From: Rhodovulum robiginosum
GTDB lineage: Bacteria > Pseudomonadota > Alphaproteobacteria > Rhodobacterales > Rhodobacteraceae
Reading direction: 5' to 3'
NCBI RefSeq assembly: GCF_003944755.1
Contig: NZ_RWGU01000050.1
Location: 62,001 to 126,000, forward strand
DNA: 64,000 nt
Under the pieces are notes generated by a model. It was not told the DNA's origin. It did no database searches and worked only from the letters and a program-made list of their open reading frames with translations. Made by a program: the position numbers and the translations under genes. Shown here piece after piece: positions 25,201 through 49,583 of the stretch (positions within the stretch are counted from its first letter, which is position 1; each line of letters opens with the position of its first letter).

Positions 25201-25855
25201 CCGCACGATGGTGGGCAGCGACATCCCGCTGAACGAGGGCTGCCTGAAGCCCTTGAAAATCGTGGTGCCCGACGGGTCGATGCTGAACCCGCGCCCGCCG
25301 GCCGCAGTGATCGCGGGCAATACCGAGGTCAGCCAGGCGGCCTGCAACGCGCTATACGGCGCGCTGGGGGTGATCGCCGGCAGCCAGGCGACGATGAACA
25401 ATTTCGTCTGGGGCAACGCACGGTTCCAGAATTACGAGACGATCGCGGGCGGCACCGGCGCGGGCCCCGGGTTTGACGGTTGCGACGCGGTGCAGAGCCA
25501 CATGACCAACACGCGGATGACCGACCCTGAAGTGCTGGAAAAGCGCTTTCCCGTGCGGCTGGAGGAATTTTCCATCCGCCGGGGGTCGGGCGGGGCCGGG
25601 CGCTGGTCGGGGGGCGACGGTGCGGTACGGCGCCTGCGGTTCCTCGACGGGGTGACAGTGACGACCCTGTGTTCCCACCGCGAGATCCCGCCATTCGGCG
25701 TCGATGGCGGTGCGCCCGGGGCGGTGGGCGAGAACTGGGCCGAGTACCCCGACGGGCGCCGGGTGCGGCTGAACGGCAATGACGAGATCGACCTGCCGGC
25801 GGACGGGCTGTTCGAGATGCGCACGCCCGGCGGCGGCGGCTGGGGCGCGGCCTGA
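22259..25855 (+). CDS. 5-oxoprolinase / fused hydantoinase A-B protein
   Basis: The enzyme opens 5-oxo-L-proline to glutamate with ATP hydrolysis in the cytoplasm. The 1198-residue chain joins a HyuA-like half (about residues 1-690) and a HyuB-like half (about 695-1195). The HyuA half has DRGGTFTDVV at the N-terminus, GTTVATNALLERKG, and FDMGGTSTDVS. The HyuB half has VHLGSMSDSIK, LNSPFAGGTHLPDV, RGHHADIGGRTPGS and the glycine-rich end TPGGGGWG. Single-chain proteins of this size are usually ATP-dependent 5-oxoprolinase, while split ones are often hydantoinases or acetone carboxylase-like, hence the choice. The ATG follows GGCGGAG. Confidence 0.88.
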   Translation: MSQGAWEFWIDRGGTFTDVVARAPDGRLLTHKLLSENPERYRDAAVQGIREVLGLGAGAPLPTGAIRAVKMGTTVATNALLERKGERVLLMITQGFGELLRIGYQTRPRLFDLHIVRPELLYEDVAEVAERLDAEGEVLTPLDEAAARAALQAAHDSGIRAVAIALMHAYLNPAHEDRLAEIASDVGFTQVSASHRASRLIKLVGRGDTTVVDAYLSPILRRYVDQVAGALDVGQGGADRLLFMQSNGGLTDAALFQGRDAILSGPAGGIVGMVKTAEAAGFDRLIGFDMGGTSTDVSHYAGRYERSFETEVAGVRMRAPMMDIHTVAAGGGSICKFEDGRFQVGPESAGADPGPACYRRGGPLTVTDCNVMLGKLNPGHFPAVFGPDGDQPLDVEAVRAQFAALAQDIAAATGEAPRTPEEVAEGFLRIAVENMANAIKKISVQRGHDVTGYTLQCFGGAGGQHACLVADALGMKRVFLHPFAGVLSAYGMGLAEIRAMEECQLDAPLAEIGQAERALADLRRRAVDAVAGQGVPEGAIRTVARAHLRYEGSHQTLEVTFGPADEMQADFEATHRARFGFASPDRALLFDMLDVEAIGETGEAPAAMAPAARPEVAARVPVHLAGETVELALYDRATLGAGTRIDGPAIITEPTGTNMVEPGWAASVDERGNLILEKVAAAPRPRAAGTEADPVVLEVMSNLFMSVAEQMGATLANTSWSVNIKERLDFSCAIFDAGGDLVANAPHVPVHLGSMSDSIKTVMRAFAGELREGDAFMLNSPFAGGTHLPDVTVVTPVFVEGEARFWLGARGHHADIGGRTPGSAPPDSRRIEEEGVVIEAMRLVDRGGFLEDEAQAALTAGPYPCRNVPHNMADLKAQVAANETGRRELSKVIAQYGADVVTAYTGHVQDNAEESVRRVIDRLRAGRFSYPMDHGATIEVAVRVDRAAREAVIDFTGTSAQHAGNYNAPLSICRAVVLYVFRTMVGSDIPLNEGCLKPLKIVVPDGSMLNPRPPAAVIAGNTEVSQAACNALYGALGVIAGSQATMNNFVWGNARFQNYETIAGGTGAGPGFDGCDAVQSHMTNTRMTDPEVLEKRFPVRLEEFSIRRGSGGAGRWSGGDGAVRRLRFLDGVTVTTLCSHREIPPFGVDGGAPGAVGENWAEYPDGRRVRLNGNDEIDLPADGLFEMRTPGGGGWGAA

Positions 25856-25919: not shown

Positions 25920-26735
25920 TCACTTGGGCGCCGCGCCGCCGATGGCCGCGGTCACGGTGTCGGCCGCGCGGCGCACCTCGGCGCCGATCCGGCCCGCCTC
26001 TGACACCGGCATCCGGAACGCCGGCCCCGAGACTGACAGTCCCGCCACCGGCTCGCCATAGGCGTTGAAGATCGGCGCGGCGACGCAGCGCATGCCCTCG
26101 GCGCGCTCCTGATCGTCGATCGCATAGCCCCGCTCGCGGATGCGGGCGAGGTCGCGCTTGAGGCCGATCTCGGACGTGATCGACAGCGCGGTGAAGCCGT
26201 GCAGCCCCCGTTCGGCGACGATGGCCGTGACCCGCGCCTCGGGATAAAAAGCCAACAGCGCCTTGCCGATGCCCGAGACATGCATCGGGCTTTTCGTGCC
26301 CGGCGGGAAAAAGGCGCGGATCGCCTCGTGGGTTTCGACCTGGGTCAGAAACAGCACCTCGTCGCGGTTCTCGATGCCCAGGTTGGCGGTTTCGCCGGTG
26401 GCGCGCATCAGCGCCTGCATCGGCCCGCGGGCGCGTTCGGCCACGTTGGTGCGCCTGAGAAACCCCGATCCGATGCGAAAGGCGCCGGCCCCGACATGCC
26501 AGCGCTGCGCGCCCTCCTCCGATTCGACGATGCCGCGGGTTTGCAGCGTGGTCAGCACGCGGTAGACGGTGGGGGCGCTCTGGCCCGTGCGCTCGGCCAG
26601 TTCCGACAGCGTCAGCCCGTTGGTTTCGCTCAACGAGGCGAGAATGCCCATCGCCCGGTCGAGCGAGCGCACGGTGTTCTGTTCGGTCTTGTCGTGGAAG
26701 GCGCGGGGGCGGCCACGCGGGCGGGGCTGGGTCAT
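25920..26735 (-). CDS. bhcR: IclR-family regulator of the beta-hydroxyaspartate cycle genes
   Basis: BhcR controls the bhc operon in Paracoccus denitrificans, where it is an IclR-type protein responding to glyoxylate. This 271-residue protein has the same genomic position, divergent from bhcA. A winged helix-turn-helix lies at about residues 22-80 (LSELAERTGQSAPTVYRVLTTL) and an IclR effector domain follows (about 95-262, with SPMHVSGIGKALLA and GMRCVAAPIFNAYGEPVAGLSV). A perfect 17-bp palindrome sits 22 bases upstream of its start, in the shared intergenic region, so autoregulation is likely. Confidence 0.9.
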   Translation of the reverse strand: MTQPRPRGRPRAFHDKTEQNTVRSLDRAMGILASLSETNGLTLSELAERTGQSAPTVYRVLTTLQTRGIVESEEGAQRWHVGAGAFRIGSGFLRRTNVAERARGPMQALMRATGETANLGIENRDEVLFLTQVETHEAIRAFFPPGTKSPMHVSGIGKALLAFYPEARVTAIVAERGLHGFTALSITSEIGLKRDLARIRERGYAIDDQERAEGMRCVAAPIFNAYGEPVAGLSVSGPAFRMPVSEAGRIGAEVRRAADTVTAAIGGAAPK

Positions 26736-26756
26736 GGATCGGCGTTCCGTTCAAGC

Positions 26757-26773
26757 GTGAAAACATTTTTCAC
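26757..26773. promoter_or_regulatory. Perfect 17-bp palindrome, probable BhcR operator
   Basis: GTGAAAACATTTTTCAC has 7-bp arms around CAT. It lies 21 bases from the bhcR start and about 136 bases from bhcA, in the AT-rich intergenic region. IclR regulators usually bind such short palindromes. Assignment to BhcR is by position. Confidence 0.6.
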
Positions 26774-26828
26774 ATGATGAAATATGCGAAAGCGCCCCGA
26801 TTCAAGGGGCCTGACCACTTTTTCGCCT

Positions 26829-26846
26829 GTCAAAATCATTTTTCAA
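26829..26846. promoter_or_regulatory. Second, imperfect operator-like site before bhcA
   Basis: GTCAAAATCATTTTTCAA resembles the palindrome at 26757-26773, sharing the AAAA...CATTTTTCA core with one extra base in the left part. It lies 63 bases before the bhcA start, closer to where the bhcA promoter would be. Two sites could allow cooperative binding. The match is partial. Confidence 0.4.
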
Positions 26847-26908
26847 AAAAATTGCACCACACCGGGCCCGGCGCGTACAAGACATGGCAGGAGAGAGAGG
26901 AACACATC

Positions 26909-28087
26909 ATGGCCAGCCAGAACCCCGTTTTCATTCCGGGCCCCACGAATATTCCCGAAGTGATCCGACATGCCTGCGATATCCCGACGATGGATCACCG
27001 CTCGGCCGATTTCCCGCCGATTTTCGACAAGGCGAAGTCGGGGGTGAAGGCTGTGCTGGGTTCGGCGACCGGCGAGGTCGTGCTGTTTCCCGCCACCGGC
27101 ACCGGCGGCTGGGAGGCGGCGATAACCAACACCCTGTCGCCCGGCGACAAGGTGCTGGCGGCGCGCCACGGGATGTTTTCCCAGAAATGGATCGACATGT
27201 GCCAGCGGCACGGTCTCGACGTCCATATCATCGAGGCGCCCTGGGGCGAGGGCGTTCCGGTCGCGGCTTTTGCCGAGGCGTTGGCGGCAGACACCACTCA
27301 CGGAATCAAGGCCGTTCTCGTCACCCATAACGAAACCGCCACCGGCGTCACCTCTGACGTCGCTGCGGTGCGCGCCGCGATGGATGCCGCCGGCCACCCG
27401 GCGCTCTTGATGGTCGACGGGGTCAGCTCGATCGGGTCGATCCCGTTCAAGATGGAGGATTGGGGCGTCGACCTGGCCGTTGCGGGGTCGCAAAAGGGCT
27501 TTATGCTGCCGGCGGGGCTGGCCATCGTCGGCATCAGCCAAAAGGCGCTGGCCGCGATGGAGACGAACGGCCTGCCGCGCTGCTTCTTCGATTTGCGGGA
27601 CATGCTGTCGGGCGTCTATCCCTATACCCCGCCCGTGGGGATGATCCATGGCCTGTCGGTTGCCACCGACATGCTGCTGAGCGAGGGGATGGAGGCGGTC
27701 TATGCCCGTCATCATCGCATCGCCGAAGGGGTGCGCAAGGCCGTGGCGGCCTGGGGGTTCAGCCCTTGCGCGGTGACGCCGGCGCTCTACTCTGATACTG
27801 TAACGGCGATCGTGACGCCCGAAGGGATCGATGCCGGGCGCATCGTCACCCATGCCGCAGACACCTATGGCGTGGCGTTCGGCGCTGGGCTGGGCGCGGT
27901 TGCCGGCAAGGTGTTTCGCATCGGCCATTTGGGTCAGATGACCGACGTGATGGCGCTGGCCGGCATCGCCACGGCCGAGATGGCAATGGCCGACCTGGGC
28001 CTCGACGTGGGCCTTGGCCGGGGCGTGGCGGCCGCGCAGGACTATTACCGCAGCACACATGCCGCGCCGGCGCGTGCAGCGGCTTGA
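26909..28087 (+). CDS. bhcA: L-aspartate--glyoxylate aminotransferase
   Basis: BhcA transfers the amino group of aspartate to glyoxylate, giving glycine and oxaloacetate, and so primes and closes the beta-hydroxyaspartate cycle. The 392-residue protein is a class V PLP aminotransferase: FIPGPTNIPEVI at the start, DHRSADF, FPATGTGGWEAA for PLP phosphate, DGVSSIGSIPF, and the PLP lysine in AGSQKGFMLPAG. I chose the ATG at 26909, which follows AGAGAGAGG by 8 bases. The open frame extends further upstream but through operator-like DNA. It is the first gene of bhcABCD. Confidence 0.93.
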   Translation: MASQNPVFIPGPTNIPEVIRHACDIPTMDHRSADFPPIFDKAKSGVKAVLGSATGEVVLFPATGTGGWEAAITNTLSPGDKVLAARHGMFSQKWIDMCQRHGLDVHIIEAPWGEGVPVAAFAEALAADTTHGIKAVLVTHNETATGVTSDVAAVRAAMDAAGHPALLMVDGVSSIGSIPFKMEDWGVDLAVAGSQKGFMLPAGLAIVGISQKALAAMETNGLPRCFFDLRDMLSGVYPYTPPVGMIHGLSVATDMLLSEGMEAVYARHHRIAEGVRKAVAAWGFSPCAVTPALYSDTVTAIVTPEGIDAGRIVTHAADTYGVAFGAGLGAVAGKVFRIGHLGQMTDVMALAGIATAEMAMADLGLDVGLGRGVAAAQDYYRSTHAAPARAAA

Positions 28088-28098
28088 GGAAGGGACCG

Positions 28099-29070
28099 AT
28101 GAAAGACGCAAACGAGATGTATATCCCGACCTATGACGACGTGGTGGCCGCGCATGAGCGGATCGCCCCCTACATCCACCGCACGCCGGTTCTGACCTCG
28201 TCCTATTTCAACGAGTTGACGGGGGCCGAGCTGTACTTCAAGTGCGAGAATTTCCAGAAGGCCGGCGCCTTCAAGGTGCGGGGCGCGTGCAACGCGGTCT
28301 TCGGTCTTGACGACGCGACGGCGGAAAAGGGCGTGGCGACGCACAGCTCGGGCAACCATGCGCTGTCGCTGTCCTACGCGGCCGGGCGGCGCGGCATTCC
28401 CTGCTACGTGGTGATGCCCAAGACCGCGCCGCAGGCGAAAAAGGATGCGGTGCGCGGCTATGGCGGTATCATCACCGAATGCGAACCCTCGACGTCGAGC
28501 CGCGAGGCGGTGTTTGCCGAGGTTCAGGCCGAGACCGGCGCCGAGTTCGTACACCCCTACAACGACCCGCGGGTGGTGGCTGGGCAGGGCACATGCTCGC
28601 GCGAGCTCAACGAGCAGGTGCCGGGGCTGGACGCGGTGATCGCGCCCATCGGTGGCGGCGGCATGGTCTCGGGCACCTGCCTGACGCTGTCGAACATCGC
28701 CCCCGATATCGAGATCTACGCCGCCGAGCCCGAGCAGGCCGACGATGCCTATCGCAGCCTCAAGGCGGGCCACATCATCGCCGACGATGCCCCGAACACG
28801 GTGGCGGACGGGTTGAAAGTGCCGCTGAAAGAGCTGACCTGGCATTTCGTGTCGAACCACGTGACCGACATCTTCACCGCCTCGGAAGAGGAGATCATCG
28901 ACGCGATGAAGCTGACCTGGCAGCGGATGAAGATCGTGATGGAGGCGAGCTGCGCCGTGCCGCTGGCGACCATTTTGAAGAACAAGGATGCCTTCGCGGG
29001 CAAGCGCGTCGGCGTCATCATTACGGGCGGCAATGTCGATCTGGACAAGCTGCCCTGGATCAAGAGCTAA
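28099..29070 (+). CDS. bhcB: beta-hydroxyaspartate dehydratase
   Basis: BhcB dehydrates (2R,3S)-beta-hydroxyaspartate to iminosuccinate. The 323-residue protein is a fold-type II PLP enzyme like serine/threonine dehydratases: the PLP lysine in KAGAFKVRGACNAV near residue 60, SSGNHALSLSYAAG near 88, a glycine loop PIGGGGMVSGTC near 185, and a late TGGNVDLD motif. The ATG at 28099 lies 11 bases after the bhcA stop with GAGGAAGGG between. An in-frame TTG overlapping the bhcA stop was not chosen. The cycle assignment rests on its place between bhcA and bhcC. Confidence 0.93.
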   Translation: MKDANEMYIPTYDDVVAAHERIAPYIHRTPVLTSSYFNELTGAELYFKCENFQKAGAFKVRGACNAVFGLDDATAEKGVATHSSGNHALSLSYAAGRRGIPCYVVMPKTAPQAKKDAVRGYGGIITECEPSTSSREAVFAEVQAETGAEFVHPYNDPRVVAGQGTCSRELNEQVPGLDAVIAPIGGGGMVSGTCLTLSNIAPDIEIYAAEPEQADDAYRSLKAGHIIADDAPNTVADGLKVPLKELTWHFVSNHVTDIFTASEEEIIDAMKLTWQRMKIVMEASCAVPLATILKNKDAFAGKRVGVIITGGNVDLDKLPWIKS

Positions 29071-29083
29071 GGGAGAGAACGCC

Positions 29084-30247
29084 ATGAAAGACGTAACCAC
29101 CTTTGACGGGCTGGAAGTGGGCTATGACGTTCCGGCCGTGCCGGGAATGGACGAGGCCGATATCCAGACCCCCTGCCTGGTGCTCGACCTCGACGCGCTG
29201 GAGCGCAACATCAAGAAGATGGGCGACTGGGCCAAGGAACACGGGGTACGCCACCGGGTTCACGGCAAGATGCACAAGTCGGTGGACGTGGCCAAGCTGC
29301 AGGAAGAGCTGGGCGACGCGGTCGGCGTGTGCTGCCAGAAGGTGAGCGAGGCCGAGGTCTTCGCCCGCGGCGGCATCAAGGACGTGCTGGTGTCGAACCA
29401 GGTGCGCGATCCGGCCAAGATCGACCGGCTGGCGCGGATGCCCAAGCTGGGCGCGCGCACGATCTGCTGCGTCGACGACATCGACAACGTGGCCGACCTG
29501 TCGGCCGCCGCGCAAAAGCACGGCACCGAGATCGAGTGCCTGATCGAGATCGATTGCGGCGCGGGCCGCTGCGGGGTGACCACCACCGAGGCGGTGGTCG
29601 AGATCGCCAAGGCCATCGACGCGGCGCCGGGGCTTAAGTTCTCCGGCCTGCAAGCCTACCAGGGCGCGATGCAGCATCTCGACCTCTACGAGGACCGAAA
29701 GGCCAAGATCGACATCGCCGTGGCGATGGTGCGCGACGCCGTCGAGGCGCTGAAGGCCGAGGGGCTGGAATGCGACATCGTCGGCGGCGGCGGCACCGGG
29801 TCGTATTACTTCGAGGGCAACTCGGGGGTCTATAACGAGCTTCAGTGCGGCTCTTACGCCTTCATGGATGCCGATTACGGCCGGATCCTCGACAAGGACG
29901 GCAACCGCATCGACCAGGGCGAATGGGAAAACGCGCTGTTCCTGCTGACCAGCGTGATGAGCCACGTCAAGCCCGACAAGGCGATCTGCGATGCCGGCCT
30001 CAAGGCGCAGTCGGTCGACTCGGGCCTGCCGGTCATCTATGGGCGCGACGACGTGGAATACGTCAAATGCTCGGACGAGCACGGCGTGATTTCCGACCCC
30101 GAGGGCAACCTCGAGATCAACGAGAAGCTGAAGCTGGTGCCTGGGCATTGCGACCCGACCTGTAACGTGCACGACTGGTATGTCGGCGTGCGGAACGGCA
30201 AGGTCGAGGTCGTCTGGCCGGTCTCGGCCCGCGGCAAGGCCTACTGA
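29084..30247 (+). CDS. bhcC: beta-hydroxyaspartate aldolase
   Basis: BhcC condenses glycine and glyoxylate to (2R,3S)-beta-hydroxyaspartate, the carbon-carbon bond-forming step of the cycle. The 387-residue protein is a DSD1-type alanine-racemase-fold enzyme. It has TPCLVLDLDALERNI near residue 26, the PLP lysine in HRVHGKMHKSVDVA near 60, EIDCGAGRCGV near 160, VGGGGTGSYYFE, and metal-binding residues near the C-terminus (PGHCDPTCNVHDW). The ATG at 29084 follows GGGAGAGAA, 13 bases after bhcB. Confidence 0.93.
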   Translation: MKDVTTFDGLEVGYDVPAVPGMDEADIQTPCLVLDLDALERNIKKMGDWAKEHGVRHRVHGKMHKSVDVAKLQEELGDAVGVCCQKVSEAEVFARGGIKDVLVSNQVRDPAKIDRLARMPKLGARTICCVDDIDNVADLSAAAQKHGTEIECLIEIDCGAGRCGVTTTEAVVEIAKAIDAAPGLKFSGLQAYQGAMQHLDLYEDRKAKIDIAVAMVRDAVEALKAEGLECDIVGGGGTGSYYFEGNSGVYNELQCGSYAFMDADYGRILDKDGNRIDQGEWENALFLLTSVMSHVKPDKAICDAGLKAQSVDSGLPVIYGRDDVEYVKCSDEHGVISDPEGNLEINEKLKLVPGHCDPTCNVHDWYVGVRNGKVEVVWPVSARGKAY

Positions 30248-30261
30248 CCGCCGCGCGGGGG

Positions 30262-30312
30262 AGCCGCCTTTCGGCGGCTGCCTCCGGCGGGGGTATTTTC
30301 GCCAAGAAGAAG
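30262..30312 (+). repeat. Hairpin plus dispersed GGTATTT...GAAGAAG element in the bhcC-bhcD gap
   Basis: AGCCGCC and GGCGGCT form a 7-bp stem with a TTTC loop (30262-30279). It is followed at once by the element beginning GCCTCCGGCGGGGG, then TATTTTCGCCAAGAAGAAG. Similar elements occur at 34783-34837 and 52392-52423. It may attenuate or process the bhcABC-D message. Its placement inside an operon is unusual compared with the other copies, which lie between transcription units. Confidence 0.65.
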
Positions 30313-30369
30313 CGAGGGCGCGGGGGCGCGGACCCGGCGCCCTTTTTACGGTTCAGAGGAGGGACGGGC

Positions 30370-31335
30370 ATGATCATCGTGCCGGAGAAGGAGATTGCCG
30401 GGCTGATTTCGGCTGAGGACAGTTTCGATGCGGTCGAGTCGGTGTTCGCGGCCATGGCGCGGGGGGATGCGTATAATTTCCCGGTGATCCGCGAGGCGAT
30501 CGGCCATGCCGATGCGCTTTACGGCTTCAAGTCGGGGTTCGACCGGGCGGGGCTGGTGTTGGGGCTGAAATCCGGCGGCTACTGGCCGGGCAATGCCGAT
30601 AAGGGTCTGACCAACCACCAGTCGACCGTCGTGCTGTTCGATGCCGATACCGGGCAGGCCCATGCGCTGGTGGGCGGCAACCTGCTGACCGCGCTGAGGA
30701 CGGCGGCGGCGAGCGCGGTGTCGATCAAGCACCTGGCGCGCAAGGATGCGAAGGTGCTGGGCATGGTCGGCGCCGGGCACCAGTCAGCCTTCCAGATGCG
30801 TGCGGCGGTCAAGCAGCGCGATTTCGAGAAGGTGGTGGGGTGGAACTACCACCCCGAGATGCTGCCGCGGCTGGCCGAGACGGCCGAGGAACTGGGGTTG
30901 CCGTTCGAGGCGGTCAGCCTCGAAGAGCTGGGGGCGCAGGCCGATGTGATCGTCACCATCACCTCGTCCTTCGAGGCGCAGGTGATGGACGCCCATATCA
31001 AGCCCGGCACGCACCTGGCCTGCATGGGGACCGACACCAAGGGCAAGCAGGAGGTCGACCCCGCGATCCTGGCCCGTGCGCGGGTGTTCACCGACGAGGT
31101 GGCGCAGTCGGTCAGCATCGGGGAGGCGCAGCATGCCGTGGCGGCGGGGCTGGTCGCCGAGGGCGATATCGGCCAGATCGGCGCGGTGATCGAGGGGACG
31201 GTGCCGGGGCGGCAATCGGCCGAGGAAATCACGCTGTTCGACGGCACCGGCGTGGGACTGCAGGACCTTGCGGTGGCGGCCAAGGCGGTGGAACTGGCTC
31301 GCGAGAAAGGCGTGGCGGTCGAGGTCGATTTCTAG
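30370..31335 (+). CDS. bhcD: Iminosuccinate reductase
   Basis: BhcD reduces iminosuccinate to aspartate with NADH, regenerating the amino donor for BhcA. The 321-residue protein belongs to the ornithine cyclodeaminase/mu-crystallin family: GFKSGFDRAGLVLGLKSGGY near residue 57, LTALRTAAASAVSIKHLAR near 105, the Rossmann motif LGMVGAGHQSAFQMRA near 130, and ACMGTDTKGKQEVDP near 220. It lies 122 bases after bhcC, with a hairpin and dispersed element between, and has its own GAGGAGGG ribosome site. Its stop shares CTAG with the convergent allA stop. Confidence 0.92.
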   Translation: MIIVPEKEIAGLISAEDSFDAVESVFAAMARGDAYNFPVIREAIGHADALYGFKSGFDRAGLVLGLKSGGYWPGNADKGLTNHQSTVVLFDADTGQAHALVGGNLLTALRTAAASAVSIKHLARKDAKVLGMVGAGHQSAFQMRAAVKQRDFEKVVGWNYHPEMLPRLAETAEELGLPFEAVSLEELGAQADVIVTITSSFEAQVMDAHIKPGTHLACMGTDTKGKQEVDPAILARARVFTDEVAQSVSIGEAQHAVAAGLVAEGDIGQIGAVIEGTVPGRQSAEEITLFDGTGVGLQDLAVAAKAVELAREKGVAVEVDF

Positions 31336-31820
31336 GGCAGCCGCACCGTGTGGGGCGTGTCGAACCAGTGTTCCTCGAGGTTCGCCCCCTCGCCGATGCG
31401 GTCGACCACGGCGAAGAGCCCGGGGCCGTTGAGGGGCGTCAGCACACCGTGCCAGGTGCCGCGGGCGTAGTTCACGCCCTGGGCGCCGTCGGTGAGAAAG
31501 GCCAGCGGCGTGCCCGGCACGCCGTCCGCATCCGGCGCGACCACCACGAGGAACGGATGTTCGGACATCGGCAAGAACGCCTGGCTGCCCTCGGGGTGGC
31601 GCTCGACCATGTCGAGCGTCATCGGCAATGCGCGCGGCGTGGCACGAAACACGCTGATCCCGGCGCGGCCTGTGGACCCGAACTCGAGCCCGGCCCGGTC
31701 ATGCCAGCGCCCGCAGAGCCCGCGATTGATGATCTTGTCGGGCGGGCCCGCCGTTTCCAGAACCTCGCCGAAGGGGGCGAAGGCGGCGGCCGTCAGCGCG
31801 CGGGCGAGGATCACGCTCAT
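31332..31820 (-). CDS. allA: Ureidoglycolate lyase
   Basis: AllA splits (S)-ureidoglycolate into glyoxylate and urea, the last step of urate breakdown here. The 162-residue protein has the family length and motifs FAPFGEVLE, NRGLCGRWHD, ISVFRATPRALP, MVERHPEGSQAFLPM, and NYARGTWHGVL near the C-terminus. It starts with ATG overlapping the allantoicase stop. Its stop overlaps the bhcD stop on the other strand in CTAG. Its product glyoxylate is the direct substrate of BhcA and BhcC encoded next door. Confidence 0.92.
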   Translation of the reverse strand: MSVILARALTAAAFAPFGEVLETAGPPDKIINRGLCGRWHDRAGLEFGSTGRAGISVFRATPRALPMTLDMVERHPEGSQAFLPMSEHPFLVVVAPDADGVPGTPLAFLTDGAQGVNYARGTWHGVLTPLNGPGLFAVVDRIGEGANLEEHWFDTPHTVRLP

Positions 31821-32830
31821 TCCGGGCGGCCGTAGAGGCGCAGCCGGCTGACGCCCCCGTCGGGGATGATGTTGAAGCGCACATGGGTCACGGGGCCGAA
31901 TTCGGCCAGTTCGGCGGTGAAATCGTGCAACTGGTCGGGGCCGAGGGAAACCTCGGGCAGCAGCATGTTCCAGAACATCGAGTCGGTGATCAGCGCGTCG
32001 GTCAGCCCGTCGCCGAAGTTTTTCATGTCGGCGGCCTGTATCGAACACCGGGGCGGGAAATTGCCCTTGAAATGGGCGGTGTCCACGACGACGCGGCCGA
32101 TGCGGCCCCGCGCGCCCAGCGCGAGGATCATCCAGTCGTAACCGGGTTCGCGGCGGCGCCGGGTTTCCCAGCCATCGCCCATGTTCAGCCCGCGCCCCGG
32201 CGCCAGGAGGCGCATGTAATCGCCGTAATGGGCGTCGGACACGGCCAGAACCCGTCCGCCGTTCAGCGCCGAGACCAGGTCGATCTCCCGGCCGTCCGCG
32301 ATGGTGTCGAGCTCGGGCACGCCATAGACGCGCAGCCGGGCGATGCCGCCGTCGGGGAAGATGTTCAGCCGAAGATGCGTCCAGCTTTCGTAGCTTTCGC
32401 ATTTGAAGAAATGATGGGCGTTGGGCCCCAGCGGGCGGTGCGGCAGGACCGGCACCCAGGTCGCCGCGTCGAGATTGCCATCGCTCTGGGTGCAGGCCTC
32501 GATCATGCAGGCGGGCGCGAAGTTGCCGGTGAAATGGCTGGTGTCGATGTCGAAGCCCAGGATGCGGCCCGCCGCCGCCAGCTTGATCACCGCGTGGTCG
32601 TTGCCGCCGTCGCGGCGGCGCTGGGTTTCCCAGCCGTCCATCCACTTGCCGTGATCGTCGAACTTGCCCTCGACGAAGACCGGGGCACTGTCGTGCAGCA
32701 TCCGTTCGAGCGGCGCGAAGAATTCGTCACTGGCCGCAACCGCCTGCGCGCCGAGCCCTGCCGAGGCGAGGTTGATGCCGGTGCGGGCGAAAAGCGGCGT
32801 GTCGGGGTTGAGCGACTCGATCGAGGGCAT
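31817..32830 (-). CDS. alc: Allantoicase
   Basis: Allantoicase hydrolyses allantoate to (S)-ureidoglycolate and urea. The 337-residue protein contains the family's two repeated jelly-roll domains (about residues 22-165 and 190-335). Each has a WET(Q/R)RRR motif, an ALG/AAG-RI segment, (D/V)DTxHFxGNFxP and a terminal INxxPDGGxxRLRxYG. I chose the ATG that opens MPSIESLNP; the frame extends upstream into the puuE-uraD gene. It lies 10 bases after puuE-uraD and overlaps allA. Confidence 0.93.
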   Translation of the reverse strand: MPSIESLNPDTPLFARTGINLASAGLGAQAVAASDEFFAPLERMLHDSAPVFVEGKFDDHGKWMDGWETQRRRDGGNDHAVIKLAAAGRILGFDIDTSHFTGNFAPACMIEACTQSDGNLDAATWVPVLPHRPLGPNAHHFFKCESYESWTHLRLNIFPDGGIARLRVYGVPELDTIADGREIDLVSALNGGRVLAVSDAHYGDYMRLLAPGRGLNMGDGWETRRRREPGYDWMILALGARGRIGRVVVDTAHFKGNFPPRCSIQAADMKNFGDGLTDALITDSMFWNMLLPEVSLGPDQLHDFTAELAEFGPVTHVRFNIIPDGGVSRLRLYGRPE

Positions 32831-32840
32831 GGAATATCCG

Positions 32841-34259
32841 TTACTGCGGCAAGAGGGCGTCGAGGCGCAGGCGGGCGATGCGCTCGACCTGTCGGCAGGC
32901 TTCGGCAAACTCGGTCTCGGCCTCGTTGTCAATGCGCTTGCCGAAGGCGGCGAGGATGCCGGCCTTGTCGTGATCGCGCACGGCGATGATGAAAGGAAAG
33001 CCGAACTTCGCCGTGTAGGCGTCGTTCAGCCGGGTGAACTCGGCCCGTTCGGCATCGGTCAGCGCGTCCAGCCCGGCGCTGGCCTGTTCGGCGGCCGAGG
33101 CGTCGGTCAACCGCCTTGCGGCGGCCAGCTTGCCGGCAAGGTCGGGATGGGCCCTCAGCACCTCCAGCCGGTCCTGAGGCGGGGCAGAGCGGAAGGCGCG
33201 GGCCAGCGCGGACTGCATGCCGACGGCGGTGTCATGGGCGGGGCCCAGTTCCAGCTCGAAGGCGCGTTCGGCGACCCAGGGCGAATGCTCGAAAATGCCG
33301 CCGAAGGCCGCGACGAAATCGGCGCGGCGCATCTCGGAGGGGCGGTCGAAAGAGACGGGCGGGTGCGCCGCCGCCCAGTGCCGGGCGATGTCGACGCGCC
33401 GGGCGAACCACACGCCCTCGTGGCCCCTGGCATGATCGAGGAAGCGTTTCAGCGCGGCCAGCCGTCCCGGGCGCCCGGCCAGCCGGCAATGCAGCCCGAT
33501 CGACATCATCTTGGGCGTGCCGGCCTGCCCCTCGGCATAGAGCACGTCGAAGCTGTCGCGCAGATAGGCAAAGAACTGGTCGGCCGAGTTGAACCCCTGC
33601 GGCGTGGCGAACCGCATGTCGTTGGCATCGAGCGTATAGGGCACGATCAGCTGGTCGCGGTCCGCGACGCGCATCCAGTGGGGCAGATCGTCGTCATAGC
33701 TGTCGGCCACGTAGTCGAACCCGCCCTCTTCGGCGGCCAGCCTCACCGTGTTCATCGAGCAGCGCCCGGTATACCAGCCGCGCGGCCGTTCGCCGGTGAC
33801 CTCGGCGTGCAGCCGGATCGCCTCTGCCATCTGGGCGCGCTCTTCGGCCGGGTCCATGTCCTTGTATTCGATCCATTTCAGGCCGTGGCTGGCGATTTCC
33901 CACCCCGCGGCCTGCATCGCGTCCACCTGTGCGGGGCTGCGCGCCAGCGCCGTTGCCACGCCGTAGACCGTGACCGGAACGCCTGCCCCGGTGAAAAAAC
34001 GGTGCAGCCGCCAGAACCCCGCGCGCGCGCCGTATTCGTAGATCGACTCCATGTTCCAGTGGCGCTGGTCCGGCCAAGCGGCGGCGCCGACGATTTCCGA
34101 CAGGAACGCCTCGGACGCGGCGTCGCCGTGCAGCAGGCAGTTCTCGCCGCCTTCCTCGTAATTGATGACGACCTGCACGGCGATCTTCGCGCCGCCGGGC
34201 CAGGCGGCATCGGGCGGCGTGGGGCCGTGGCCATGCAGGTCGCGGGGGTATCGGCGCAT
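32841..34259 (-). CDS. Fusion of allantoinase (PuuE) and OHCU decarboxylase (UraD)
   Basis: The 472-residue chain joins two consecutive purine-pathway enzymes. Residues 1 to about 305 match PuuE, the polysaccharide-deacetylase-fold allantoinase that opens allantoin to allantoate (YEEGGENCLLHGD, SIYEYGARAGFWRL, SHGLKWIEYKDMD, WYTGRCSMNT). Residues about 310-472 match UraD, which decarboxylates 2-oxo-4-hydroxy-4-carboxy-5-ureidoimidazoline to S-allantoin, with catalytic His in FEHSPWVAERAF, AHPDLAGKLA and FGFPFIIAVR. Pseudomonas has separate proteins. The UraD product is the PuuE substrate, so a fused protein could hand over allantoin. The start follows GGAGGAG and is divergent from uraH. Confidence 0.93.
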   Translation of the reverse strand: MRRYPRDLHGHGPTPPDAAWPGGAKIAVQVVINYEEGGENCLLHGDAASEAFLSEIVGAAAWPDQRHWNMESIYEYGARAGFWRLHRFFTGAGVPVTVYGVATALARSPAQVDAMQAAGWEIASHGLKWIEYKDMDPAEERAQMAEAIRLHAEVTGERPRGWYTGRCSMNTVRLAAEEGGFDYVADSYDDDLPHWMRVADRDQLIVPYTLDANDMRFATPQGFNSADQFFAYLRDSFDVLYAEGQAGTPKMMSIGLHCRLAGRPGRLAALKRFLDHARGHEGVWFARRVDIARHWAAAHPPVSFDRPSEMRRADFVAAFGGIFEHSPWVAERAFELELGPAHDTAVGMQSALARAFRSAPPQDRLEVLRAHPDLAGKLAAARRLTDASAAEQASAGLDALTDAERAEFTRLNDAYTAKFGFPFIIAVRDHDKAGILAAFGKRIDNEAETEFAEACRQVERIARLRLDALLPQ

Positions 34260-34372
34260 CGGCTCCTCCGTCGGGATCGGGACAGCCCCGTTATGCCGCC
34301 TCGGCCCTCGCCAGAGAAGCGGTTTCATGCCAGAACCCGGGGAAGAGGCGAGCGATGCTGAAGGAGTGAGCG

Positions 34373-34735
34373 ATGACGACCGGCGGCTACCTGACGACCC
34401 ATGTCCTCGACACCGCCCGCGGCTGCCCGGCGGCGGGGCTGAAAATCGAGCTTTTCGAGATCGAAGGCGGCGCGCGCAAACCGCTGGCCGAGGCGGTCAC
34501 GAACGCCGACGGACGCACCGCCGAGCCGATCCTGCCCCGCGGCGCCTTCCGCCCCGGGCATTACGAGCTGGTCTTCCACGCCGGGCGCTATTTCGACGCC
34601 GCCGGCAAGGCAGGCGGCACCCCGCGCTTTCTCGACGAGATCCCGATCCGTTTCGGCATCGCCGACGGGGCCGCGCACTACCATGTGCCGTTGCTTCTGT
34701 CGCCCTATGGCTATTCCACCTACCGCGGCAGCTAG
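34373..34735 (+). CDS. uraH: 5-hydroxyisourate hydrolase (transthyretin-like)
   Basis: The enzyme hydrolyses 5-hydroxyisourate, the urate oxidation product, to OHCU, which UraD then decarboxylates. The 120-residue protein has the family hallmarks: [14 protein letters not shown] at residues 7-20, a central [16 protein letters not shown], and the diagnostic C-terminal YRGS. The ATG follows GAAGGAG. It is divergent from puuE-uraD and lies 211 bases before puuD on the same strand, with a long inverted repeat between. Confidence 0.95.
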
Positions 34736-34782
34736 GGCGCACCGGCCCCGGCGGCGGCGCCTCGGGCAGGGTCGGGGATCAT

Positions 34783-34837
34783 GGGTATTTCAGCCAAGAA
34801 GAAGGCAATGCCCGCTTCTTCTTGGCAAAAAATACCC
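34783..34837. repeat. Two dispersed elements in inverted orientation forming a long hairpin
   Basis: GGGTATTT, three bases, then CCAAGAAGAAG (34783-34804) is followed by a 10-base loop and CTTCTTCTTGG, then AAATACCC (34815-34837). The arms are perfect apart from a small internal bulge. On one strand the structure ends near an AT-rich AATTA. It lies in the 211-base gap between uraH and puuD and may terminate uraH transcription. The rest of the gap is GC-rich without further signals. Confidence 0.75.
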
Positions 34838-34946
34838 AATTATGGTGCGCCGCGTGCCGCGGGCGCGGCCGGTGCGGATTTCGCGGTGCATGGTGCGCCG
34901 GCGCGCGCTATAGCGGAACGGACGGGATTTCGAGGGCCGGCGAGGC

Positions 34947-36188
34947 ATGTTCGAGAGCTACACTTTCGCCCTTTTGTGGGATTGGGCCGAGTTTGCCGCG
35001 CGCTGGCTGCACGTGATCACCGCCATCGCCTGGATCGGTTCGTCCTTCTATTTCATCGCGCTGGACCTCGGGCTGAGGCGGCGCGACGGTCTGCCCGAGG
35101 GCGTGGCGGGCGAGGAATGGCAGGTGCATGGCGGCGGCTTTTACCACATCCAGAAATACGTGGTCGCCCCCGACCACCTGCCCGACCACCTGACCTGGTT
35201 CAAATGGGAAAGCTACGCGACCTGGCTGTCGGGTTTCGCGATGATGGTACTGGTCTATTACATGGGGGCCGACCTTTACCTCGTGGACGCGGCGCGGCTG
35301 GACCTGCCGGTCTGGCTGGCGATCGGGCTGTCGGTGGCCTCGATGGTGGGCGGCTGGTTTGCCTATGACCGGGTTTGCCGTACCCGCTTTGGCGACGACA
35401 ATTTGCGGCTGATGCTGTTTCTCTTTGCCGTTCTGGTGGCGCTCAGCTGGGTGTTTGCCCAGATCTTCACCGGCCGCGCGGCGCTTTTGCACCTGGGCGC
35501 CGTCACCGGCACCTTGATGGCGGGCAACGTGTTTTTGACGATTATCCCCAACCAGAAGATCGTGGTGGCCGATCTGAAGGCGGGGCGGGTGCCCGACCCG
35601 GTTTACGGCAAGATCGCCAAGCAGCGGTCGGTGCATAACAATTACCTCACCCTGCCGGTCTTGTTCCTGATGCTGTCGATCCATTATCCGCTGGCCTTCG
35701 CCAGTCAGTGGAACTGGCTGATCGGGGCGCTGGTGTTCCTGATGGGCGTGACGATCCGGCATTACTTCAACACCCGCCACGCGCGCGCGGGCAACCCGCT
35801 ATGGGCCTGGGCGCTGACGGTGGCGATTTTCCTGGTCATCGTCTGGCTGTCGGCCCTGCCCGGGCGCGAGCCCGCGGCGGCGGCGGCGGAGGAGGCCGCG
35901 CTGCGCGGGCCGGCGCGGGCCTATGCCGCGGCCGAGGGGTTCGAGGACGTTTACTACACCGTGCTCGGGCGCTGTTCGATGTGCCACGCGCGCGCGCCGA
36001 GCTGGGACGGGATGCATTGGGCGCCCAAGGCCGTGCATCTGGAGACCGAGGCCGATGTCGCGCGCCATGCCCGGCAGATCTACCTGCAGGCCGGGGCGAG
36101 CCACGCGATGCCGCCCGGCAATGTCAGCTACATGACCGAGCAAGAGCGCGCGGCGATCGTGGCGTGGTATCGCGCGGCGCGCGGCTAG
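34947..36188 (+). CDS. puuD: Membrane-bound urate oxidase with C-terminal cytochrome c domain
   Basis: PuuD oxidises urate to 5-hydroxyisourate and passes electrons to the respiratory chain rather than to oxygen directly. The 413-residue protein starts with about eight membrane helices (residues about 10-305; WLHVITAIAWIGSSFYFIAL, HGGGFYHIQKY). After an Ala/Glu-rich linker it ends with a periplasmic cytochrome c domain whose haem motif CSMCH is near residue 345 and whose probable axial Met lies in HAMPPGNVSYM. It is the only urate-oxidising enzyme in the window. Its stop overlaps the convergent gene's stop in CTAG. Confidence 0.93.
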   Translation: MFESYTFALLWDWAEFAARWLHVITAIAWIGSSFYFIALDLGLRRRDGLPEGVAGEEWQVHGGGFYHIQKYVVAPDHLPDHLTWFKWESYATWLSGFAMMVLVYYMGADLYLVDAARLDLPVWLAIGLSVASMVGGWFAYDRVCRTRFGDDNLRLMLFLFAVLVALSWVFAQIFTGRAALLHLGAVTGTLMAGNVFLTIIPNQKIVVADLKAGRVPDPVYGKIAKQRSVHNNYLTLPVLFLMLSIHYPLAFASQWNWLIGALVFLMGVTIRHYFNTRHARAGNPLWAWALTVAIFLVIVWLSALPGREPAAAAAEEAALRGPARAYAAAEGFEDVYYTVLGRCSMCHARAPSWDGMHWAPKAVHLETEADVARHARQIYLQAGASHAMPPGNVSYMTEQERAAIVAWYRAARG

Positions 36189-37786
36189 CGCAGGGCCAGG
36201 GCCGTGCCGTCGGGCGCGACCGTGACCGCCCGGTTGACGCCGGTCTCGGCCCAGCCGCTGGCGGTGCCGTCCGGCCAGATTACCCGCACCCGGGCGGTTT
36301 GCGCCGCCCCGAGGCCGAAATGCTCGGGCCCCGCAAGTCCGCCCGCATGGCCGCCACCCACGGTGATCTCGCGCGCCTGCACGCGGCTCCCGGCCTCGAC
36401 CTCGACCCAGGCGCCGACGCCGCGCGTGTTGGGCGCATCGCTGGCCAGCGCGACGGCCAGCCAGTGGCCGGTGCCGTCGGTTCGGTTCTCGTAGATCTCC
36501 ATCGGCGCACGGCGGTTGACCACGGCGAGATCGAGCCGCCCGTCGCGGTTGAGATCGACGAGCGCCGCGCCGCGGCTGCGGGCGAGGCTGGCGATGCCGG
36601 CCGCGGCGCCGGCCTCGTCAAAACGTCCGTCCGCCGCCTGGATCAGCAGATTGTTGGGGTCGTGGATCGCGTTCGAGGGCATCTGGTCGACATTGCCCTT
36701 GGCCACGAAGATGTCGTCGCGCCCGTCGTTCTGCACATCGCCGAAGGCGACGTGCCAGCCGGTCGAGGGGCGGCCGTCATCGCCCAGGTAGGGGCGGTGG
36801 GCGGTGGTGCCCCGGTCATAGGGCGCGTCGCGGTAGACCGGGCCCCCGGCCCCCGGCACCAGCATTTGCAGACGCTGGTCGCCCATCGAGCTGAGATAGA
36901 TTTCGGGCAGCCCGTCGCCGGTGATGTCGCGGCTGGCGATGCCCATGCCCCACAGGCGGAAGCTCTGCCAGCCGTCCTCTGGACCGTAGAGCCGGGGCCG
37001 CTGATCCATCGCCCACATCTGTTCCTCGCCGCCTTTCACGTAATAATGCCGGTCGTTCGAGATGCGCAGGTCCGCGCGGCCCTGTCGGCCCCAGTCGGAA
37101 AACAGCATCGACAGCGCGCAGAAGCCCGGCTCCAGCGGCAGGGCGTGGCCGTAGCGGGCGCCCGTGGGCCGGATGAGCCGGTTGCCGTCGCAGGTGCCGA
37201 AGGGGCCCTTGGGGTCGTCGCGATCGACGTAGTTGCCGAAGGCCAGGGTGGGGCGCACCGCGCCGGCCTCCCACGTGGCGGAAAAGGCGGTGGTCCATCC
37301 GGTGCCGGGGGCGATGCCCCAGGCCTCGGTGACATCGGCAAACCGGCAGCCGGACGCGCCGCGCAGCACCCGGTTGCCACCCACGCGCAACACCACCAGA
37401 TCGAGCGGGCCGTCGCCGTCGATATCGAGAGGATAGGCCCCGGTCACCCCGGTCAGCCGCAGAGCGGCAGGCGTGTCGGCGATGAAATCGAGGGGTGCGC
37501 CGGGGGCAGGGGTGCGGTTGCGGAGCAGCACCGCGGGCGCCGTGCCGCCCGCCGCGAAAAGCTCGGGCAAACCGTCGTCGTCGCAATCGAAGGCGGCAAG
37601 CCCCCCGCCGACGAAATGCTCCCACCCGCCCGTATAGCGATGCTCGATGCCCAATGCGGCCGCGCGTTCGACGAAGTGCGGGGTCTGCGCGGCGGCCCCG
37701 CCGGCAAGCAAGAACGCAAGGCCTGCCACCGCCACCGCAAGGCGGCGCAGAACAAAATAAACATGGCCGCTTTCCGCAAACCGCAT
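36185..37786 (-). CDS. Secreted CRTAC1-like beta-propeller protein (FG-GAP/VCBS and ASPIC/UnbV)
   Basis: This 533-residue protein has an N-terminal signal peptide (RRLAVAVAGLAFLLAGGAAA). Several calcium-binding FG-GAP/VCBS blades follow, recognisable by their Asp-rich loops (DCDDDGLPELF, LDIDGDGPLDLV, DITGDGLPEIY, DLNRDGRLDLAV). The C-terminal ASPIC/UnbV part (about residues 430-530) has GVGAWVEVEAGS and a VRVIWPDGTAS strand. Such proteins are extracellular or periplasmic with unknown roles. The start is the first ATG before the signal peptide and has no clear ribosome site. Confidence 0.85.
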   Translation of the reverse strand: MRFAESGHVYFVLRRLAVAVAGLAFLLAGGAAAQTPHFVERAAALGIEHRYTGGWEHFVGGGLAAFDCDDDGLPELFAAGGTAPAVLLRNRTPAPGAPLDFIADTPAALRLTGVTGAYPLDIDGDGPLDLVVLRVGGNRVLRGASGCRFADVTEAWGIAPGTGWTTAFSATWEAGAVRPTLAFGNYVDRDDPKGPFGTCDGNRLIRPTGARYGHALPLEPGFCALSMLFSDWGRQGRADLRISNDRHYYVKGGEEQMWAMDQRPRLYGPEDGWQSFRLWGMGIASRDITGDGLPEIYLSSMGDQRLQMLVPGAGGPVYRDAPYDRGTTAHRPYLGDDGRPSTGWHVAFGDVQNDGRDDIFVAKGNVDQMPSNAIHDPNNLLIQAADGRFDEAGAAAGIASLARSRGAALVDLNRDGRLDLAVVNRRAPMEIYENRTDGTGHWLAVALASDAPNTRGVGAWVEVEAGSRVQAREITVGGGHAGGLAGPEHFGLGAAQTARVRVIWPDGTASGWAETGVNRAVTVAPDGTALALR

Positions 37787-37885
37787 GGCGATAAGGTTAG
37801 ACGCGAAAAACACGCGGTGCTAGCGTTCTTGCATCGGGGTCGATTCCGCCAAGAGAGGACCCGATGAATGTTACGGGAGGACATC

Positions 37886-40353: not shown

Positions 40354-41124
40354 ATGGCACCCCCGCTGGTCGAGATGCGCGATATGCAGAAAGCTTTTGG
40401 CGGCATCCGCGCCGTCGATCACGTCAATGTCGACCTTCACCCCGGCGAGGTGGTGGGGATCCTGGGGCATAACGGCGCCGGAAAGTCGGTGCTGATGAAG
40501 ATGCTGTCGGGCGCGCTGCCGCGCGACGGGGGCGAGATCTTCATCAACGGTACGCCCGCGCCGATCAACAGCCCGCGCGACGCGCGCGACTACCAGATCG
40601 AGACGATCTACCAGTACCTCGCGCTGGCCGACAACCTGGACGCCGCGGCCAACATGTTCCTCGGGCGCGAGCTGGTGACGCCGCTGGGGCTGGTCGACGA
40701 CGCAAAGATGGAGGCCGAGACGCGCAAGATCATGAAGCGGCTCAACCCCAATTTCCGCCGCTTCAAGACCCCCGTTTCCGGCCTTTCGGGCGGGCAGCGG
40801 CAATCGGTGGCCATCGCGCGGGCAGTCTATTTCCAGGCCAAGATCCTGATCATGGACGAGCCCACCGCGGCGCTGGGGGTCGAAGAGACGCGGATGGTCT
40901 CGGAGCTTATAGAAGAGCTCAAGCGGCAGGGGATCGGGATTTTCCTGATCGACCACGACATCCACCAGGTCAAGTCGATGTGCGACCGCGCCAGCGTGAT
41001 GAAGAACGGCCGGCTGGTGGGAACGGTCGATGTCGACAAGGTGACCGAGGATGACCTGCTCGGCATGATCATCGCGGGCAAGGACCCGATGACCGGCGAG
41101 ATGGTCGGCGCCGCCGAGGTCTAG
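40354..41124 (+). CDS. xylG: Xylose/sugar ABC transporter ATP-binding protein, single domain
   Basis: This protein drives the XylFH importer. It has one ATPase domain of 256 residues: Walker A GHNGAGKS near residue 37, signature LSGGQRQS near 142, Walker [12 protein letters not shown] near 164, and a switch His in [10 protein letters not shown]. coli XylG has two fused domains and about 510 residues, so this is a half-size form like FrcA of rhizobia and must act as a homodimer. The ATG follows AGGAGG by 6 bases. Its stop shares CTAG with the convergent glycerate kinase gene. Confidence 0.88.
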
Positions 41125-49545: not shown

Positions 49546-49583
49546 GACATATGCAAATATACGAATGTTTAAGGAGGAGACGC

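What the first reader, a model, noticed from the sequence alone, without database searches (positions are those of the whole stretch)
25920..36188. Urate breakdown and the beta-hydroxyaspartate cycle lie side by side: a purine-to-oxaloacetate route
Seen: bhcR-bhcABCD runs into allA, alc, puuE-uraD, uraH and puuD with no gene between. Known: AllA releases glyoxylate, and BhcA/BhcC consume glyoxylate and glycine to give oxaloacetate, a route described for glycolate use in marine proteobacteria. Inferred: the locus couples purine nitrogen scavenging to net carbon assimilation of the glyoxylate by-product, so both N and C of urate are kept. I know of no description of bhc as the sink for purine-derived glyoxylate. 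BhcR, which senses glyoxylate, could then respond to purines as well as glycolate.
Basis: partly seen in the sequence, partly recalled or inferred. Interest (0 to 1): 0.75.

Follow-up and report, generated by a model that had tools for sequence, protein, structure and literature searches.

The report
Purine breakdown joined to glyoxylate recovery
Many bacteria of one largely marine group keep the genes that take urate apart next to the genes that turn the leftover glyoxylate into a central metabolite, which suggests that this carbon-recovery cycle, so far explained by algal glycolate, also serves purine breakdown.

Summary
In detail: bhcR-bhcABCD abuts allA, alc, puuE-uraD, uraH and puuD, all over curated cut-offs. 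It recurs. I examined 100 of the 168 family genomes whose BhcC passes its cut-off (about one genome per genus, 9 kb each side): 34 loci hold allA (0.5 expected by chance), 41 hold some purine-catabolic gene, 1 holds glycolate oxidase. The pairing comes in several gene orders and needs at least 20 gains or losses on the bhc tree. Glyoxylate carboligase, the usual sink for allantoin glyoxylate, passes its cut-off in 0 of 394 genomes. Xanthine-to-oxaloacetate islands sit on Leisingera and Ruegeria plasmids. In Paracoccus denitrificans, model of this cycle, bhcABCD is followed on the same strand by xanthine permease, 8-oxoguanine deaminase and uraH. Corrections: in the window the two gene sets converge, so they are not one operon; its purine promoters lack a BhcR box; only 2 of 5 urate carbons reach glyoxylate; in its genus only 2 of 13 genomes with both genes pair them. 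Best reading: bhc is a sink for purine glyoxylate, coupled through glyoxylate as signal. No growth or expression data exist here, and the papers I opened do not describe the link.

The parts
25920..26735 (-). bhcR, IclR-type regulator, glyoxylate-responsive in P. denitrificans
   Evidence: NCBIfam NF045644 399.9 bits, cut-off 350; 8 of 9 ligand-site residues as in P. denitrificans BhcR
26758..26772 (.). Putative BhcR box TGAAAACATTTTTCA, the only site in the window with fewer than 3 mismatches to TGAAAANNNTTTTCA
   Evidence: best site within 2 mismatches in 143 of 160 bhcR-bhcA intergenic regions
26909..28087 (+). bhcA, aspartate-glyoxylate aminotransferase
   Evidence: NF045640 694.7 bits, cut-off 650
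28099..29070 (+). bhcB, beta-hydroxyaspartate dehydratase (open frame from 28084)
   Evidence: NF045641 608.8 bits, cut-off 550
29084..30247 (+). bhcC, 3-hydroxy-D-aspartate aldolase
   Evidence: NF045642 770.9 bits, cut-off 690; residues 4-387 match the solved enzyme 6QKB
30370..31335 (+). bhcD, iminosuccinate reductase
   Evidence: NF045643 599.3 bits, cut-off 500
31332..31820 (-). allA, ureidoglycolate lyase (releases glyoxylate and urea); its stop overlaps that of bhcD by 4 bases
   Evidence: NF002952 274.7 bits, cut-off 260; Pfam PF04115
31817..32830 (-). alc, allantoicase; ATGA overlap with allA
   Evidence: TIGR02961 425 bits, cut-off 277.9; solved relative 1SG3
32841..34328 (-). puuE-uraD fusion: allantoinase plus OHCU decarboxylase
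   Evidence: TIGR03212 536.9 bits and TIGR03164 209.2 bits, both over cut-off
34373..34735 (+). uraH, hydroxyisourate hydrolase
   Evidence: TIGR02962 133.8 bits, cut-off 87.45
34947..36188 (+). puuD, membrane urate oxidase with a weak C-terminal cytochrome c match
   Evidence: Pfam PF06181 438.6 bits; PF13442 22.4 bits, below its cut-off of 27

Best explanation
The locus is one metabolic module made of two facing gene sets. PuuD, UraH, UraD, PuuE, Alc and AllA take urate to ureidoglycolate and split it into urea and glyoxylate. Glyoxylate is both a toxic intermediate and the signal for BhcR. BhcR turns on bhcABCD, and the beta-hydroxyaspartate cycle joins two glyoxylate into one oxaloacetate without losing carbon. 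Glycolate oxidase, encoded 43 kb away, feeds the same sink. Shown here: gene identities, arrangement, recurrence, no family hit for the rival sink Gcl, BhcR residues and an operator-like palindrome. Inferred: that purine-derived glyoxylate reaches an inducing level and that the flux matters to the cell. Taken from published work on P. denitrificans: the enzyme reactions and the BhcR response.
For: Gene identities. allA beside bhcC in 34 of 100 loci (one genome each, about one per genus), 0.5 expected; any of 13 core purine-gene queries in 41 of 100; glcDEF in 1 of 100. Purine genes beside bhc in several orders: 30 of 34 convergent downstream, 3 upstream, 1 inverted downstream. At least 20 changes of the pairing on well-supported branches of the bhcBCD tree of 95 rows. 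Gcl over cut-off in 0 of 394 genomes, E. coli control positive (at most the best few first-look candidates of each genome were scored); malate synthases G and A not found in this genome, controls positive. Islands with xdhAB on Leisingera and Ruegeria plasmids. Same-strand xanthine permease, 8-oxoguanine deaminase and uraH after bhcD in P. denitrificans. A gene for a (S)-ureidoglycine aminohydrolase / bifunctional allantoicase lies in 31 of 100 family bhc loci (one member named by NCBIfam).
Against: No expression, growth or flux data. No BhcR box at the window's purine promoters (best score 2.1 against a median of 24.8 at bhc promoters). In the own genus only 2 of 13 genomes with both genes pair them. 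In the family 367 of 394 genomes have allA but only 168 have bhcC over cut-off, so many purine users need no bhc. 59 of 100 bhc loci have no core purine gene nearby. The three rows outside Rhodobacterales in the named sample are unpaired. Malyl-CoA lyase and aminotransferases were not searched and may also remove glyoxylate.
Confidence: 0.75

Rival explanations
1. The pairing is inherited gene order with no functional meaning: the two sets happened to meet once in a Rhodobacterales ancestor and drifted apart in many lines. bhc serves glycolate only.
For: 30 of 34 pairings share one orientation, which fits one ancestral order with many losses. In the own genus 11 of 13 genomes with both genes do not pair them. 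On the bhcBCD tree the label is slightly clustered: 25 of 500 shuffles need as few changes.
Against: Four pairings have other orders or sides. P. denitrificans and kin have a different, same-strand arrangement with other purine genes. The window and one congener pair bhc with a purine cluster whose proteins form a clade apart from the cluster of the 11 other Rhodovulum genomes (support 100 each). The label needs at least 20 changes on the tree. Glycolate oxidase, the supposed partner, is near bhc in 1 of 100.
Confidence: 0.15
2. bhc here is mainly a detoxification or nitrogen-sparing device: it removes toxic glyoxylate while purines are used for nitrogen, and net carbon gain is minor. This is a variant of the best explanation, not its opposite.
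For: Purines are nitrogen-rich and only 2 of 5 urate carbons reach glyoxylate (established stoichiometry, recalled). Urease is encoded. No Gcl or malate synthase hit as an alternative outlet.
Against: The cycle yields oxaloacetate by design, and purine permease genes in the same islands suggest that purines are taken up from outside. Nothing here separates the two roles.
Confidence: 0.4
3. Direct regulatory fusion: BhcR also controls purine genes, so glyoxylate switches on purine uptake and urate opening.
For: In P. denitrificans bhcABCD, xanthine permease, 8-oxoguanine deaminase and uraH lie on one strand with gaps of 41 bases, an overlap and 16 bases, and the longest G+C-rich terminator-like hairpin found comes after uraH. 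BhcR-like boxes (score 13 or more) at 6 of 49 puuE promoters of paired loci, 0 of 19 in bhc-free genomes, 0 of 11 in other Rhodovulum. A BhcR relative (349.6 bits, cut-off 350) next to allA in a genome without bhcC match.
Against: No box in the window's purine promoters. The six boxes score 13-21, below most bhc promoters, come from two overlapping samples, and may belong to the LysR regulator there. At puuD promoters the pattern is reversed: 0 of 30 paired loci, 1 of 15 bhc-free. Terminator-like sites in the P. denitrificans stretch number 8, with 4.7 expected from shuffles, and one weaker site lies inside the permease gene. The P. denitrificans bhc promoter itself scores only 7.7 with my motif.
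Confidence: 0.25

Closest known systems
Beta-hydroxyaspartate cycle of Paracoccus denitrificans (bhcRABCD)
   Same: All four enzymes, the divergent BhcR gene and a promoter palindrome
   Different: Described as the sink for glycolate and ethylene glycol (PMC11323563: one section and passages read; PMC12214560: passages read); here its neighbours are purine genes
E. coli allantoin regulon (allR, gcl and partners)
   Same: Purine glyoxylate, an IclR-family glyoxylate sensor that acts on gcl and allA promoters (statement in PMC11323563, section 5 read)
   Different: Sink is the glycerate pathway; Gcl passes its cut-off in 0 of 394 genomes here
Allantoin-inducible gcl cluster PA1498-PA1502 of Pseudomonas aeruginosa (PMC12694930, passages read)
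   Same: A dedicated glyoxylate sink induced by allantoin and needed for growth on it
   Different: Gcl, Hyi, GlxR route to glycerate; no beta-hydroxyaspartate genes (0 occurrences of the term)
Purine catabolism genes of SAR11 (PMC11698098, passages read)
   Same: puuD, hiuH, uraD, puuE, alc, ureidoglycolate lyase; purine carbon said to leave as glyoxylate
   Different: The term hydroxyaspartate does not occur in the main text
glcDEF-bhcRABCD of Rhizobium sophoriradicis plasmid pCC511_1
   Same: Same bhcRABCD order
   Different: Glycolate oxidase genes lie next to it instead of purine genes: the glycolate wiring of the same sink

Membership tests
Beta-hydroxyaspartate cycle locus | bhcA, bhcB, bhcC, bhcD all over curated cut-offs and collinear | tested here: met
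Beta-hydroxyaspartate cycle locus | Divergent BhcR with glyoxylate-binding residues | tested here: met
   NF045644 over cut-off; 8 of 9 residues as in P. denitrificans, position 143 Ala instead of Thr, positions mapped by me from the alignment to IclR
Beta-hydroxyaspartate cycle locus | Conversion of glyoxylate to oxaloacetate in vivo | not testable with these tools
   needs enzyme assays or a deletion strain
Urate-to-glyoxylate route | puuD, uraH, uraD, puuE, an allantoate-degrading enzyme and ureidoglycolate lyase | tested here: met
Urate-to-glyoxylate route | Upstream xanthine dehydrogenase in the genome | tested here: met
   xdhB 1203.7 bits, cut-off 849.5, on another contig
Allantoin-glycerate (Gcl) system | Glyoxylate carboligase over cut-off | tested here: not met
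   0 of 394 family genomes, own genome included; E. coli control passes; usually 3 first-look candidates scored per genome
Single purine-to-oxaloacetate operon | bhc and purine genes on one strand with short gaps | tested here: not met
   convergent in the window; met in sequence for part of the route in P. denitrificans and P. ferrooxidans
BhcR regulon that includes purine genes | BhcR box at the puuE-uraH or puuD promoters of the window | tested here: not met
   best score 2.1 at puuE-uraH, -7.1 at uraH-puuD; the box itself is my own motif, not tied to BhcR by experiment
Purine-derived glyoxylate sink | bhc induced by and needed for growth on allantoin or urate | not testable with these tools
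   no expression data held

The most novel reading that the evidence does not exclude
In Rhodobacterales the beta-hydroxyaspartate cycle is first of all a purine pathway and only secondarily a glycolate pathway. In its own model organism, P. denitrificans, the BhcR-controlled operon runs on into a xanthine permease, 8-oxoguanine deaminase and uraH, so glyoxylate made from purines switches on both its own recovery and more purine uptake; plasmids carry the whole module among marine bacteria.
Probability: 0.35. Interest if true: 0.8.

Novelty: new variant of a known kind. Interest (0 to 1): 0.63.

Why it matters
The cycle is presented as the marine answer to algal glycolate, yet its gene neighbourhood in 100 sampled genomes of the family holds purine genes in 34-41 and glycolate oxidase in 1. 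If purine glyoxylate is a main input, carbon budgets that read bhc expression as glycolate use need revision, and a known model species with published bhcR and bhcABCD deletion strains can test it at once. It would also fill a gap: how these bacteria, in which no glyoxylate carboligase passed its cut-off, handle glyoxylate from purine nitrogen scavenging.

Tried and rejected
Chance neighbourhood: rejected (0.5 expected, 34 of 100 seen; the model assumes random placement in 4 Mb and ignores kinship). Reading the locus as one operon: rejected for the window (convergent strands). Direct BhcR control of purine genes in the window: no box; in relatives 6 of 49 puuE promoters carry a weaker box, inconclusive. 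Glyoxylate carboligase as alternative sink: no hit over cut-off. A substitute sink beside purine genes in bhc-free genomes: in 20 allA loci that I picked from genomes without a bhcC match, the recurrent families next to allA were purine genes and their regulator; L230 has a BhcR relative and L222 a hydantoinase-type gene. Viral copies: 13 pattern matches, none a relative. Adjacency outside Rhodobacterales: the named sample has few such rows (1 Oceanospirillaceae, 2 Hyphomicrobiales), none paired; Aminobacter plasmid unpaired, Rhizobium plasmid with glcDEF instead. Ruegeria xanthine literature: the 15 papers listed of 435 gave nothing on the point. Whether P. denitrificans has allA was not settled (182 records matched, 60 shown, no Paracoccus among those shown).
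Full report
What is there. The window is contig C22, 62001-126000, of a 3.71 Mb genome. The genus is most likely Rhodovulum (inferred): the same-genus genome G363 has a bhc contig of the same length and place as R. euryhalinum DSM 4868, and R. marinum, R. euryhalinum and R. steppense share hyuAB-bhcR-bhcABCD with the window at 76-94% protein identity. bhcR (-) diverges from bhcABCD (+). bhcD ends tail to tail with allA, the stop codons overlapping by 4 bases. allA, alc and puuE-uraD form a tight set on the - strand (ATGA overlap, 10-base gap), and uraH and puuD diverge from it on the + strand. All proteins pass curated cut-offs. BhcC matches the solved aldolase 6QKB over residues 4-387. The urate-to-glyoxylate route is thus complete in the window; xanthine dehydrogenase and urease are elsewhere in the genome, and glcDEF lies on the same contig about 43 kb upstream of bhcC (GlcF over its cut-off, GlcD and GlcE below theirs).

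Is the pairing real beyond this genome? I searched 394 genomes of the family, drawn evenly, of 393 genera. BhcC passes its cut-off in 168 of 394, AllA in 367 of 394. From the BhcC places that the tool listed (a capped list, best scores first) I fetched 100, one per genome, in list order and without the own genome, with about 9 kb on each side where the contig allowed. So 100 of 168 genomes were seen, and the lower-scoring ones were not. allA lies in 34 of 100; in one more, L032, allA begins just outside the stretch that I took. At least one of 13 core purine-gene queries hits in 41 of 100, glcDEF in 1 of 100, xanthine dehydrogenase xdhB in 2 of 100. Among the 74 loci of full length the figures are allA 24, any core purine gene 31, glcDEF 0. 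Random placement predicts 0.5 of 100 with allA. A second, named sample of 80 loci from another collection, the closest of 570 to the query and partly the same genomes, has allA in 22, any core purine gene in 24 and glcF in 1. Genera with the pairing there include Leisingera, Ruegeria, Marivita, Shimia, Palleronia, Roseicyclus, Roseovarius, Aestuariivita, Paragemmobacter and Pseudotabrizicola.

Is it inherited order or renewed pairing? 30 of 34 pairings have bhcD facing allA; two have the purine set upstream of bhcR in the - orientation, one upstream in +, one inverted downstream. On a bhcBCD tree of 95 rows (14 of 108 loci left out for missing genes or short flanks, window added) the pairing needs at least 24 changes, 20 of them forced by well-supported branches; shuffled labels need 27.9 on average and 25 of 500 shuffles need as few, so the label is only slightly clustered. 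In the genus, BhcC is in 15 of 16 genomes, AllA in 13 and allantoicase in 2. The two with allantoicase, this one and G401, are the only two with the pairing; the other 11 with AllA have a different purine cluster, with an aminohydrolase and a permease gene (10 of 11 also with a LysR gene), away from bhc. In the purine-protein tree the pair and the 11 are two clades, each with support 100, while in the bhc tree the two paired genomes are not sisters. So pairing and bhc history do not go together in this genus.

Named examples. Leisingera methylohalidivorans DSM 14336 plasmid: modABC, bifunctional allantoicase/ureidoglycine aminohydrolase, bhcR, bhcABCD, NCS2 permease, ureidoglycolate lyase, puuE (with uraD), uraH, LysR, puuD, LysR, xdhA, xdhB. 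Ruegeria sp. THAF33 plasmid: the same from the aminohydrolase to xdhB. Sulfitobacter sp. OXR-159, S. faviae and Marinovum algicola plasmids carry bhcABCD, a urea-channel gene, permease, allA, puuE, uraH and more. Pseudosulfitobacter pseudonitzschiae has xdhC, a permease, guaD and the aminohydrolase before bhcR, with allA not within 9 kb but about 19 kb away on the plasmid NZ_CP086892. Paracoccus pantotrophus has uraH and puuD 4-5 kb past bhcC. Not paired: Aminobacter and Paracoccus marcusii; Rhizobium sophoriradicis has glcDEF beside bhcR instead. These records were picked from hit lists of 118 records with BhcC, not at random.

The model organism. A P. denitrificans record (strain HAMBI_2443) encodes a BhcC identical in all 387 residues to 6QKB (that 6QKB is the P. 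denitrificans enzyme is recalled). After bhcD, on the same strand, follow a xanthine permease (510.8 bits, cut-off 414.15; 41-base gap), an 8-oxoguanine deaminase (698.1, cut-off 532; overlapping start), uraH (124.3, cut-off 87.45; 16-base gap), a terminator-like hairpin and puuD (8 terminator-like sites in the stretch, 4.7 expected). P. ferrooxidans has the same order, its puuD place annotated as cysteine desulfurase, and goes on to LysR, xdhABC and guaD; Paracoccus sp. SMMA_5_TC names PuuD there. PMC11323563, which made the bhcR deletion strain and used a bhcABCD deletion strain, does not contain the word permease in its main text, and PMC12214560 contains neither purine nor allantoin.

Sinks and signal. 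Gcl passes its cut-off in 0 of 394 genomes while the E. coli control passes; each genome has weaker hits, up to 369 bits against 711, and usually 3 candidates were scored per genome. Malate synthases G and A are not found in this genome. BhcR of the window has 8 of the 9 ligand-site residues listed for P. denitrificans BhcR (Table 1 of PMC11323563, section read; alignment). 143 of 160 bhcR-bhcA intergenic regions hold a site within two mismatches of TGAAAANNNTTTTCA, 7 of 160 in one set of Markov shuffles; the window has a perfect one at 26758. The motif was found by me and has not been tied to BhcR by experiment; PMC11323563 reports a palindromic site upstream of bhcA without letters that I could read. 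The window's purine promoters have no such site.

Literature. Searches: each showing a part of its hits. No paper that I saw listed or opened joins bhc genes to purine genes. Opened, passages only: PMC12694930, PMC11698098, PMC11166783, PMC12214560, PMC8307300, PMC10878069; PMC11323563, section 5 and passages. The last states that purines and allantoin yield glyoxylate and that BhcR forms a sister group to IclR and AllR. The 2019 Nature paper is not held, so it or its supplement may mention the neighbours. PMC8307300 says that the presence of the cycle in purple non-sulfur bacteria needs study; Rhodovulum does not occur in its text.

Judgement. The link is real as genome organisation. Function is inferred. 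I rate the sink role at 0.75 and the stronger claim, that purines are the main client of the cycle in this order, at 0.35.

Noticed in passing
31817-32830: The window uses an allantoicase where many relatives have a cupin-type ureidoglycine aminohydrolase / bifunctional allantoicase; the allantoicase is in 2 of 16 genus genomes and gave no hit in 100 family bhc loci.
   Followed up: partly
22259-25855: A fused hydantoinase/oxoprolinase-type protein sits upstream of bhcR in several Rhodovulum genomes, and a relative sits beside the purine cluster of G003 (L222), which has no bhcC match; substrate unknown.
   Followed up: partly
L105 and L058 (family loci); 25 of 100 family loci: A glyceraldehyde-3-phosphate dehydrogenase-like gene lies near bhcC, often just after bhcD, in many genera; its role beside this cycle is unexplained.
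   Followed up: no
L230:7928-8908 (-): A BhcR relative (349.6 bits, cut-off 350) stands next to allA in a genome without a bhcC match, as if the regulator stayed with the purine genes.
   Followed up: partly
L263, L266, L270: An AmiS/UreI urea-channel gene follows bhcD on Sulfitobacter and Marinovum plasmids, and has a match in 1 of 100 family loci; urea is the other product of the purine route.
   Followed up: no
L262:4298-6788: Molybdate uptake genes modABC open the Leisingera purine-bhc island, fitting the molybdenum need of xanthine dehydrogenase; modABC also in L049, L114 (unpaired) and L185.
   Followed up: partly
41121-42392: A protein with DUF4147 and MOFRL domains (glycerate 2-kinase type, recalled) lies 5 kb past puuD although no glyoxylate carboligase passes its cut-off in the genome.
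   Followed up: no
50434-50448: A second BhcR-box-like site (score 18.1) lies inside open frame 49530-50903; probably chance.
   Followed up: no
36185-37813: An FG-GAP/ASPIC-UnbV repeat protein overlaps the end of puuD by 4 bases on the other strand.
   Followed up: no
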